The position numbers were made by a program, and so were the translations under genes. A stretch of DNA of 64,000 nt from Phycisphaerales bacterium (GTDB taxonomy: Bacteria; Planctomycetota; Phycisphaerae; Sedimentisphaerales; Anaerobacaceae), in NCBI GenBank assembly GCA_003170415.1, contig PMZJ01000030.1:55628-119627 (forward strand), in the 5' to 3' direction. Shown piece by piece: positions 41,972 to 44,741 of this stretch. The stretch's first letter is position 1, and the number at the start of each line of letters is the position of its first letter. The notes under the pieces are model-generated. The model saw only the letters and a list, made by a program, of their open reading frames with translations. It was not told the DNA's origin and did not search any database.

Positions 41972-42928
41972 ATGCGTGCTATGCTCATCGAATCCAGCGT
42001 TGAAACACAAAGAGCCAGACCATTCTTGAAATGGGCAGGTGGAAAAACACAATTGCTTGACGAAATAGATCCTCGCCTGCCCAATAAAGAAATCGAAGCA
42101 GGCCAAATCGACACTTATGTCGAACCATTCATCGGCGGCGGTGCTGTATTTTTTCACATAGCGAATAAATACCCACACATTCGGCATTTTGTTCTTCTCG
42201 ATGTTAACGAGGACTTGGTCAACTGCTACAATGTTGTCAGGAATAGTGTTACCTCGGTTATCGTAGAGCTTCGAAGATTAGAAAACCGCTATCTTAAATG
42301 CGATGAATCCAGACGCAGTGCTATGTACTATCGTATTCGCGAAGAGTTCAATAGCGACAGATTGCCCACAAAACTCATCTTTCTCAATAAGACATGCTTC
42401 AATGGCCTATACCGAGTGAATAAAAACAATGCCTTTAATGTTCCGTTTGGTAATTACAAAAACCCAACAATTTGCGATGAAGAAAACTTAATGGCTGCAT
42501 CGACAATCCTGCAAGACGCAGAGATAATTGCTGCCGATTTCGAAGAATCGGAACAATATATCAGTAAGCATTGTTTTGTGTACCTTGACCCACCGTATCG
42601 TCCAATAAGCGCCACCGCAAGTTTTACTTCATACGCGAAAAGCGATTTTACTGAAAAAGACCAAATCCGACTTTCGAACTTTTGTGGACGGATACGGCAA
42701 AAGGGGGCCAGATTTCTCTTAAGCAACTCCGACCCTAATAACGAAGACCCAAAGGATAATTTTTTCGACAGACACTATCGAGGGTTCACGATTGCCACGG
42801 TAAAGGCCACCAGAATGATAAACTGCATAGGTTCCCTAAGAGGCCAAATCAACGCTTATATCGAACCATTTATCGGCGGAGGCGCTGTCTTTTTTCACAT
42901 CGCGCAGAAATATCAACAAGTGCATTAA
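41972..42928 (+). CDS. dam: Dam-type (D12 class) N6-adenine DNA methyltransferase with abnormal duplicated C-terminus
   Basis: 'RPFLKWAGGKTQLLDEI', 'EPFIGGGAVFFHI', 'NKTCFNGLYRVN', 'VYLDPPYRPIS'; C-terminus 'GQINAYIEPFIGGGAVFFHIAQKY' repeats the N-terminal 'GQIDTYVEPFIGGGAVFFHIANKY'. Confidence 0.94.
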   Translation: MRAMLIESSVETQRARPFLKWAGGKTQLLDEIDPRLPNKEIEAGQIDTYVEPFIGGGAVFFHIANKYPHIRHFVLLDVNEDLVNCYNVVRNSVTSVIVELRRLENRYLKCDESRRSAMYYRIREEFNSDRLPTKLIFLNKTCFNGLYRVNKNNAFNVPFGNYKNPTICDEENLMAASTILQDAEIIAADFEESEQYISKHCFVYLDPPYRPISATASFTSYAKSDFTEKDQIRLSNFCGRIRQKGARFLLSNSDPNNEDPKDNFFDRHYRGFTIATVKATRMINCIGSLRGQINAYIEPFIGGGAVFFHIAQKYQQVH

Positions 42929-42974
42929 AAAAAATATTCCACAGCAATTGACTCCATTACCTGTTTGATCAATA

Positions 42975-43151
42975 ATGTCGTATATGCTAAACGACCCTAT
43001 GAAATATGACAAAAACCCCGAATTCTTGGAATTTCTTACCAGAGAGTTCGACCAAACTGCTACCAGTGCAACCATAGAGGAACTGGCCGAATTCGCGTTT
43101 GGCTCTATTGATGATGCCGTGAAGGGCTTTGAGGAGTTCAAAAAACAATGA
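42975..43151 (+). CDS. Small (58 aa) acidic ORF translationally coupled to the DpnI-like gene
   Basis: MSYMLNDPMKYDKNPEFLEFLTREFDQTATSATIEELAEFAFGSIDDAVKGFEEFKKQ*; ATGA overlap with the next start. Confidence 0.5.
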   Translation: MSYMLNDPMKYDKNPEFLEFLTREFDQTATSATIEELAEFAFGSIDDAVKGFEEFKKQ

Positions 43152-43927
43152 TGCTGGATCTACCAATCGAGGTTGCACAAGGGTACAAAAGCCAATCGCA
43201 GATAGCAAGAGTGGTGACGGAAGCATGGATGGGGCGAAATATGTATTGTCCTGCGTGCTCGTCCAACAAACTTTATGATACGACACCCGGCACAGAAGCA
43301 GTTGACTTCGTGTGCTCGCAATGCGATGCCCCGTTTCAACTTAAGGCGTTAAGCAAGCCAATTGGCCGGAAAGTAGTCGATGCCGCTTACGATGCAATGA
43401 TGCGAGCAATCCAGCGAAATGGCCTGCCACATTTTCTTTTTTTGAGTTACAATTATTCTGATCGCAAAGTCACTGACCTGCTCCTTGTCCCAAGATTTTG
43501 TCTGCCTTCATCAGCCATTGAAAAACGGAATCCCCTTGCAGCAACTGCAAGACGTGCCGGATGGGTCGGCTGCAATATCCTTCTTGACCTTGTGCCTCCG
43601 GAAGGACGAATAGCCATAATTCGCTCCGGCAGCATTATCCCAAAACCAATTGTAAGAAAGTGCTTCTCTCAAATTACCCCACTGGCTGATTTACCCGTTA
43701 AAATACGTGGTTGGACGCTGGATGTACTGACTGCTCTCCGCTCTTTGGATAAAAGCGAATTTACTATAGATGACGCTTACTCTTTTGAGGCGTTGTTGTC
43801 GCATATGCATCCCGAAAATCGCAATGTCAGACCCAAAATCAGACAGCAGTTGCAGATTCTTCGCGACCTCGGATACTTGGACTTTGTTGGCATGGGCGTT
43901 TACCGCTGGATAAGGAATAATCTATGA
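43148..43927 (+). CDS. DpnI-family (type IIM / Dam-replacing family) restriction endonuclease
   Basis: 'YKSQSQIARVVTEAWMGRNMYCPACSSN', 'DFVCSQCDAPFQLKA', 'NPLAATARRAGWVGCNILLDLVPPEGRI', 'RPKIRQQLQILRDLGYLDF' match DpnI block by block. Confidence 0.93.
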   Translation: MMLDLPIEVAQGYKSQSQIARVVTEAWMGRNMYCPACSSNKLYDTTPGTEAVDFVCSQCDAPFQLKALSKPIGRKVVDAAYDAMMRAIQRNGLPHFLFLSYNYSDRKVTDLLLVPRFCLPSSAIEKRNPLAATARRAGWVGCNILLDLVPPEGRIAIIRSGSIIPKPIVRKCFSQITPLADLPVKIRGWTLDVLTALRSLDKSEFTIDDAYSFEALLSHMHPENRNVRPKIRQQLQILRDLGYLDFVGMGVYRWIRNNL

Positions 43928-44169
43928 ACTCTTATATCTTCATAACAACTGAGGGCTATACGTACCAGCCGGGAAGTGAATCGATAGAACCAGATATAGA
44001 AAACTGCCAAGTGGTTGGTTTTTCAGAAGGTCACACACCAGAAGAAGCTTTCGGTAGTCTAATCTGCGAAAATGAGCATCTTTTGGGAACAACTTTTAAC
44101 GAAGTGATTTGTCATGAACTCAGATATCATGATTTCGATAAGCGTGCGAAGAATTTTAACTTGGTATAG
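43924..44169 (+). CDS. Small conserved-looking hypothetical protein
   Basis: 81 aa; 4-bp overlap with the DpnI-like gene. Confidence 0.55.
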   Translation: MNSYIFITTEGYTYQPGSESIEPDIENCQVVGFSEGHTPEEAFGSLICENEHLLGTTFNEVICHELRYHDFDKRAKNFNLV

Positions 44170-44741
44170 ATATTAATCCCGATGCCGCGAAACTTGCCGA
44201 AGAATCACTGAAGTTTGCTCACCACCCGCCTACTAAACAAAAGGTTATGGTTGGCGATGCCCGTGATTTATCTTTTCTTAAAGATGATTCGATTGACCTG
44301 ATAATTACCCATCCGCCTTATATGAATATCATCAGGTATTCGGATGGCAAGATACCGGCAGACATTTCAAATATAAGTTCATTGCCCAAGTTTTGTGACG
44401 AGATTGAAAAGGTGGCGAAAGAATTGTTCCGCGTTCTTAAGCAGGATAAATACTGTGCGATTCTTATTGGCGATACACGCAAAGGCAGACATTTTGTCCC
44501 CCTTGCTTTTAATGTTATGCAGCGATTTCTAACAGTTGGCTTTGTCCTAAAAGAGGACATAATCAAGGTCCAACATAACTGCACAACCACCGGGCGCTGG
44601 CGAACCAAAGCTCTGCAAGAAAAATTTTATCTGATAATGCACGAGCATTTATTTGTCTTTAGGAAACCAAAAGAGGGAGAAGATTTATCCCGTGTCAAAT
44701 TCAGTCTAATGCGTCCGATGAATCCGGAGACACCACAATAG
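44160..44741 (+). pseudogene. 5'-truncated DNA methyltransferase (N4/N6 type)
   Basis: Open frame starts directly at SAM-motif 'LGIDINPDAAKL', then 'VGDARDLSFLKDDSIDLIITHPPYMNIIRYS' and 'YCAILIGDTRKGRHFVPLAFNVMQRFL'; the upstream 'DPMxGxGTT' region is absent. Confidence 0.8.

What the first reader, a model, noticed from the sequence alone, without database searches (positions are those of the whole stretch)
41972..44741. Restriction-modification island pairing a Dam-type methyltransferase with a DpnI-family (methyl-directed) nuclease
Seen: a D12-class Dam-like MTase, a 58-aa ORF, a DpnI-like nuclease, an 81-aa ORF and a second, truncated MTase lie in one tight + strand array with ATGA overlaps. 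Established: DpnI cuts only methylated GATC, and in pneumococcus DpnI (methyl-dependent) and DpnII (with Dam MTases) are alternative, mutually exclusive cassettes. A functional GATC Dam next to a methyl-GATC-dependent nuclease would be self-destructive. Inference: either the Dam-like MTase is inactive, or the nuclease has another specificity (for example blocked rather than activated by methylation), or the small ORFs restrain the nuclease. Any of these would be unusual.
Basis: partly seen in the sequence, partly recalled or inferred. Interest (0 to 1): 0.75.

Follow-up and report, generated by a model that had tools for sequence, protein, structure and literature searches.

The report
DpnI nuclease replacing truncated Dam methylase
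The island holds a DpnI-type enzyme that should cut only methylated GATC DNA, next to a Dam methylase that has lost its C-terminal end, so the apparent self-destructive pair is best read as the trace of a methylase-to-nuclease swap that recurs in many microbes.

Summary
In detail: a Dam-like MTase (41972-42928), a 58-aa ORF, a full DpnI homolog (43148-43927), an 81-aa ORF and a 5'-truncated second MTase lie in one array inside a ~3.3 kb insertion between purE and a lipoprotein gene. The nuclease keeps the DpnI residues that contact the methyl groups and the winged-helix residues. The Dam is not normal: its last strand (ELIITNY in relatives) is replaced by a 26-residue copy of its own motif-I region. 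That copy is a scar shared with two related loci in which only the first ~70 Dam codons remain before a DpnI-type or PLD-winged-helix nuclease. In a survey, all 12 Dam-like genes found directly upstream of such nucleases lack their 3' end (at least seven distinct break points); all 7 Dam genes in DpnII-, Sau3AI/MutH- or similar operons of the class are complete. So the paradox most likely resolves as 'Dam dead or dying, DpnI alive': a locus caught in a Dam-to-DpnI replacement, the pneumococcal DpnI/DpnII theme elsewhere. Methylation status and enzyme activities are untested. Genome-wide GATC avoidance (0.12 of expected) is lineage-wide and not caused by this island.

The parts
41690..45010 (.). 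~3.3 kb insertion (the island) between purE and a small lipoprotein-like gene
   Evidence: In congener G403 (L187) purE is followed after ~25 bp by sequence matching window 45018 onward; flanks align at about 79-85% with nothing of the island in between. G401 carries a different ~1.8 kb insert at the same site.
41972..42928 (+). Dam-like D12-class m6A MTase, 318 aa, C-terminally abnormal
   Evidence: PF02086/TIGR00571; motifs EPFIGGG, DPPY and NGLYRVN..FNVPFG present; deviates from 51 relatives at 1 of 109 conserved columns, E295 in the lost strand.
42841..42928 (+). Scar: copy of Dam codons ~44-70 fused in frame after RGQIN, replacing the conserved ELIITNY end
   Evidence: 78-nt direct repeat, 85%; downstream sequence co-linear with the Dam 1-70 remnants of L081 and L296.
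42975..43151 (+). 58-aa conserved ORF of unknown function
   Evidence: 32 homologs in 5.8 billion proteins, core FLEFLTREFDxTAxxATIEELAEFAFGS; homologs upstream of DpnI in L081 and L306 and of a PLD-wH nuclease in L296.
43148..43927 (+). DpnI-family nuclease, 259 aa, PD-(D/E)XK + winged helix
   Evidence: 4esj match over 251 residues; D53, Q64, K66; methyl pocket L130, R136, W139, G141; wH K230, R232; 0 deviations at 89 conserved columns of 120 relatives.
43924..44169 (+). 81-aa ORF of unknown function
   Evidence: phmmer relatives (108, 72, 32 bits) within 0.7 kb of DpnI-like genes in L004, L021, L073.
44170..44741 (+). 5'-truncated remnant of the second (THPPY-type, PF01555) MTase of GATC operons
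   Evidence: Starts inside the motif I region (GIDINPDAAK) with a stop upstream in frame; full-length homologs of ~265-275 aa in L082 and L297-L303.

Best explanation
The island is a DpnI-type (methyl-GATC-directed) restriction module that has taken the place of an orthodox GATC restriction-modification operon [XRE regulator - Dam - REase - second MTase]. In this lineage the swap leaves the 5' end of the dam gene upstream of the nuclease and a 3' piece of the second MTase downstream. In the window a further event, a deletion at the short shared stretch GG(C/T)CAAATC(A/G)AC (GQIN/GQID), fused a nearly full dam gene to such a scar and removed the last conserved strand. The DpnI homolog is the working part and cuts incoming Gm6ATC DNA; the Dam is most likely non-functional, so there is no self-destruction. 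Shown: anatomy, lost C-terminus, shared scar, contrast with complete Dams in orthodox operons. Inferred: order of events, that loss of the strand inactivates the Dam, that the nuclease is active and Gm6ATC-specific.
For: DpnI residues for methyl contact and wH readout kept (their roles from PMC4117772). Dam C-terminus replaced; RGxI(N/S)E(L/I)(L/I)ITN ends all 7 Dams of orthodox operons and the relatives' alignment. 12 of 12 Dam-like genes directly upstream of DpnI or DpnI_C nucleases end early (about residue 294, 253, 257, 85, 257, 95, 67, 69, 40, 253, 60, 54 of 300) against 0 of 7 in DpnII-, Sau3AI/MutH-like, DUF6997 and similar operons. Same scar junction in L081 and in congener G402 before a PLD-wH nuclease. 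L081's 68-residue remnant is nearly identical to the N-terminus of a complete Dam, P0129. AF2: last strand pLDDT 43 in the window Dam, 84 in intact relative P0122 (weak). The chimeric Dam is not a one-off assembly: P0121, 7 members on 4 contigs.
Against: The Dam body has no stop or frameshift and keeps its catalytic motifs and conserved columns, so it was functional until recently; AF2 still draws a strand at 292-297. Q64 replaces DpnI's catalytic E64, so nuclease activity is not certain. The 12 loci are not independent (window/L081/L296 share a junction; L061/L076/L371 a break region). Conservation of the pocket in the fetched loci is partly selected for by the scan patterns (ARRAGW, KIRQQLQ), though not in the protein search.
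Confidence: 0.7

Rival explanations
1. A true type II R-M pair: the nuclease has changed and cuts unmethylated GATC, the Dam protects the host.
For: Dam body conserved; Q64 instead of E64 in all 120 closest relatives; orthodox GATC operons with Dam occur in the same class.
Against: All methyl-contact and wH residues kept; relatives of the nuclease sit beside Dam remnants or no Dam at all (L081, L306, L001, L082); the Dam lacks its last conserved strand.
Confidence: 0.1
2. Both enzymes are active and methyl-GATC-specific, held in check by regulation or by the 58- or 81-aa proteins (conditional self-restriction).
For: The 58-aa ORF is conserved and overlaps the nuclease start; 81-aa homologs lie near other DpnI-like genes.
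Against: 58-aa homologs also precede nucleases where Dam is only a remnant (L081, L306, L296), so they are not needed to reconcile the two; no recognised inhibitor family.
Confidence: 0.06
3. The Dam is active but the nuclease is dead or silent.
For: Q64 for E64; some DpnI-like genes elsewhere are decaying (L406).
Against: No deviation from 120 relatives at 89 conserved columns; Q-x-K variants of the PD-(D/E)XK site are known in active enzymes (general knowledge).
Confidence: 0.08
4. The Dam-scar fusion is an assembly chimera of two strains.
For: The window is from a 43-contig draft assembly; two Dam-derived segments adjoin.
Against: Cluster P0121 has the same chimeric C-terminus and lists 7 members on 4 contigs, the longest 3.5 kb.
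Confidence: 0.06

Closest known systems
DpnI (dpnC) of Streptococcus pneumoniae; type IIM methyl-directed REase
   Same: Two-domain architecture, end-to-end homology (200 bits), methyl pocket and wH residues.
   Different: Gln64 instead of Glu64; 58-aa and 81-aa neighbours instead of DpnD; Dam remnant and second-MTase remnant kept at the sides.
DpnI/DpnII complementary cassettes of pneumococcus (PMC3573125)
   Same: Methyl-directed and orthodox GATC systems as alternatives; here within one class of Planctomycetota.
   Different: Not shown to occupy one fixed chromosomal locus; relics of the orthodox operon stay inside the DpnI-type one; the window keeps nearly all of the dam gene.
drg, the dam-replacing gene of Neisseria (PMC4269198)
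   Same: DpnI homolog in place of dam.
   Different: Here the dam 5' end stays as a scar upstream; separate replacements in several phyla.
wH-fusion m6A-dependent nucleases (PMC11037411)
   Same: DpnI_C wH on DpnI-like or PLD nucleases; adjacent MTases reported inactivated by frameshift in some cases.
   Different: Here Dam genes are inactivated by 3' truncation at the nuclease gene, repeatedly; one scar is shared by DpnI-like and PLD-wH nucleases.
DpnII / MboI / Sau3AI-type GATC R-M operons
   Same: Dam-like MTase and second MTase homologous to those of L297-L303.
   Different: No unmethylated-GATC REase in the window; both MTases truncated.

Membership tests
DpnI / dam-replacing family (PF06044+PF17726) | DpnI catalytic domain plus DpnI_C winged helix over full length | tested here: met
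   PF06044 1-178/183, PF17726 3-69/70; PDB 4esj 3-253; PADLOC mREase_II 3-255/256
DpnI / dam-replacing family (PF06044+PF17726) | PD-(D/E)XK active site D53, E64, K66 | tested here: inconclusive
   D53 and K66 kept; position 64 is Q, as in 120/120 closest relatives
DpnI / dam-replacing family (PF06044+PF17726) | m6A methyl pocket L129, R135, W138 (G140) and wH K229/R231 | tested here: met
   all kept (roles)
DpnI / dam-replacing family (PF06044+PF17726) | cuts Gm6ATC, not GATC | not testable with these tools
   needs purified protein
Dam-family GATC MTase | D12 fold with motif I, DPPY and GATC-contact hairpin | tested here: met
   TIGR00571 306 bits over cut-off 115; alignment to DpnM 2dpm and EcoDam
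Dam-family GATC MTase | conserved C-terminal strand E-L-I-I-T-N-Y | tested here: not met
   replaced by AYIEPFIGGGAVFF...
Orthodox DpnII-type R-M system | complete Dam plus REase for unmethylated GATC | tested here: not met
   no DpnII, MutH/Sau3AI or DUF6997 gene in the island; Dam incomplete
Orthodox DpnII-type R-M system | complete second MTase | tested here: not met
   5'-truncated remnant 44170-44741

The most novel reading that the evidence does not exclude
A nearly complete Dam and a methyl-GATC nuclease are both functional in one operon, with the 58-aa protein or the altered Dam C-terminus giving partial or timed methylation, so that the cell runs a conditional self-restriction (mark-and-cut) circuit.
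Probability: 0.06. Interest if true: 0.85.

Novelty: new member of a known kind. Interest (0 to 1): 0.42.

Why it matters
It turns an apparent contradiction into a fossil record: Dam genes beside DpnI-type nucleases are repeatedly cut off at the nuclease side, in Planctomycetota, Acidobacteria, Clostridia, Methylacidiphilum and an archaeon. This makes a testable rule (a methyl-GATC nuclease tolerates no complete Dam next to it) and suggests that the pneumococcal DpnI/DpnII alternation has parallels across phyla. It also warns against annotating 'Dam + DpnI' as an R-M pair.

Tried and rejected
(1) 'MTase adjacency shows that the nuclease is methyl-blocked': complete beta-class MTases do sit beside many Acidobacteria DpnI-like genes (motif IFADPPYFLSNGGIT), but their nearest solved relative is CcrM (GANTC), not a proven GATC enzyme, so this was not used. 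(2) Residue 64 (E or Q) as a marker of MTase association: Q64 also dominates the MTase-free loci; rejected. (3) GATC avoidance as a sign of this island's activity: O/E 0.12 genome-wide but equally low in congeners without the island (G401 0.11, G403 0.13); it is a lineage property, matching the published 38 of 42 DpnI-carrying genomes (PMC4687349). (4) Viral contigs: no full-length relative; plasmids collection: only Neisseria at 32% full length; phages: wH domain only. (5) AF2 on the Dam: modest models (67 and 73 mean pLDDT), used only as weak support. (6) L081 as a deletion product of the window arrangement (recombination between the two repeats) fits as well as the reverse order; direction not settled.

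Full report
WHAT IS THERE. The Dam-like gene is a D12-class MTase; the nuclease is a full DpnI homolog with both DpnI domains and scores as 'Type II methyl-directed restriction enzyme' in PADLOC; the last gene is the C-terminal part of a PF01555 MTase whose 5' part is missing. The 58- and 81-aa ORFs match no family. Same-genus genomes show that the whole set is an insertion: in G403 purE is followed within ~25 bp by sequence matching window 45018 onward, and G401 has an unrelated insert at that site. The host is Sedimentisphaerales-like (closest named relatives are Planctomycetota and Sedimentisphaerales MAGs).

THE NUCLEASE. DpnI recognises both methyl groups with L129, R135 and W138 (W138 packed on G140), and a K229A/R231A change in the wH domain impairs DNA binding by the catalytic domain (PMC4117772). 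The window protein has L130, R136, W139, G141, K230 and R232. The 120 best relatives from the protein search keep these positions almost without exception, and the window protein departs from them at none of 89 conserved columns. The only departure from DpnI at a key site is Gln64 for the catalytic Glu64, shared by all 120. On sequence the enzyme should need Gm6ATC; that it cuts is inferred.

THE DAM. Its body departs from 51 relatives at one of 109 columns conserved at 95% or more: E295, in the C-terminal strand. After RGQIN the relatives read ELIITNY (or close to it) and stop soon after; the window reads AYIEPFIGGGAVFFHIAQKYQQVH, a diverged copy (85% in DNA) of its own codons ~44-70. The fusion point is a short shared stretch, GQIN at the 3' end and GQID at codons 44-47. 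The same chimeric protein forms cluster P0121, with 7 members on 4 contigs. AlphaFold2 gives the final strand pLDDT 43 in the window Dam and 84 in the intact relative P0122; both models are modest and the alignment of the tail is uncertain, so this is weak.

WHERE THE TAIL COMES FROM. In metagenome locus L081 (84% identical nuclease) the gene before the 58-aa ORF is only Dam residues 1-67 plus a stop, nearly identical to the N-terminus of a complete Dam, P0129. In congener G402 (L296) Dam residues 1-70 precede a relative of the 58-aa ORF and then a PLD-like nuclease carrying the DpnI_C winged helix. The sequence after the remnant is co-linear in all three. So the window tail is a pre-existing scar to which a nearly full Dam has been fused, or the window arrangement is older and L081 is its deletion product; the direction is open.

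THE OPERON THAT WAS REPLACED. Within the class, Dam genes of 51-64% identity lie in operons with a REase and a complete second MTase of the THPPY type (L297-L303). The REases: DpnII family (L297, PF04556), Sau3AI/MutH-like (L301; split in L300), DUF6996/6997 (L303) and an unassigned 405-aa protein (L298). Methyl-directed variants carry XRE regulator - DpnI-like - THPPY MTase without Dam (L001, L082) or XRE - PLD-wH - THPPY MTase (L304, L305). The window's truncated second MTase is the remnant of that THPPY MTase.

THE RULE. I looked for any Dam-like gene directly upstream, on the same strand, of a DpnI-like or DpnI_C nuclease, in 160 loci, in fetched relatives and in further genome samples. 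Twelve were found: window, L038, L061, L063, L076, L077, L081, L296, L306, L371, L396, L406. All end before the final strand. Seven of seven Dams in orthodox operons reach it. The twelve share ancestry in part (window/L081/L296; L061/L076/L371), leaving at least seven distinct break points. The complete set came from best hits of a Dam query, which favours complete genes, but in that same search the two high-identity fragments (G402, G602) were those beside wH nucleases. In several loci the remnant's stop overlaps or nearly touches the nuclease start (L061, L076, L396, L077), which suggests that the nuclease borrows the dam translation start (inference).

OTHER MTASES. DpnI-like genes also occur beside complete MTases: a CcrM-like beta-class enzyme, mostly in Acidobacteria, and the THPPY MTase. 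As these are complete while Dam is not, their marks are presumably not Gm6ATC (inference). Most DpnI-like loci with adequate flanks show none of the three MTase types searched, in line with the published 87% of wH fusions without one (PMC11037411).

GATC AVOIDANCE. GATC occurs at 0.12 of expectation in this genome (1324 against 10936), but also at 0.08-0.13 in the congeners sampled, including one with an empty site. It points to long exposure of the lineage to GATC restriction, as reported for DpnI carriers (PMC4687349), and not to this island.

VERDICT. It is a new member of a known kind (DpnI/dam-replacing systems) with an unusually legible history. Activity of either enzyme was not and could not be tested here.

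Noticed in passing
window 44886-44990: About 100 bp just past the second MTase remnant is a dispersed repeat with about a dozen copies (82-90%) on many contigs of this genome; shorter dispersed repeats lie at 41720-41764 and 41845-41879, so repeats flank the island.
   Followed up: partly
G401 (L186 5920-7730), same site as the island: A different ~1.8 kb insert (475-aa lipoprotein-like ORF) at the purE/lipoprotein junction, with the 3' end of the lipoprotein gene duplicated on its far side: the site looks like an insertion hotspot.
   Followed up: partly
L296 5438-6286, L304 2229-3104, L305 4666-5514: PLD-like nucleases fused to the DpnI_C winged helix; two sit in XRE - nuclease - THPPY MTase operons, parallel to the DpnI ones.
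   Followed up: partly
L002, L003, L005, L049, L098, L105, L139, L141, L147 and others: Complete CcrM/DpnA-like beta-class MTase directly upstream of DpnI-like nucleases in Acidobacteria, often with near-touching genes; the target sequence would tell whether this is a real partner.
   Followed up: partly
L082 3761-4588 and homologs: THPPY-type MTase (WSFPERGSWATHxxxYRGNFAPQ...LDPMVGxGTT...THPPY) is the constant member of both orthodox and methyl-directed GATC operons; its mark is unknown.
   Followed up: no
G000 C12:19981-21917 (L191 4982-6918): A second D12-class MTase (394 aa) followed by a 244-aa protein that looks like an EcoRI-type REase: probably a separate R-M system; GAATTC is not avoided (O/E 0.90).
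   Followed up: no
whole genome G000: CTAG (0.11) and CATG (0.37) are also strongly under-represented.
   Followed up: no
G000 C2:19684-19832: A ~150 bp fragment matching the 3' end of purE (80%) on another contig.
   Followed up: no
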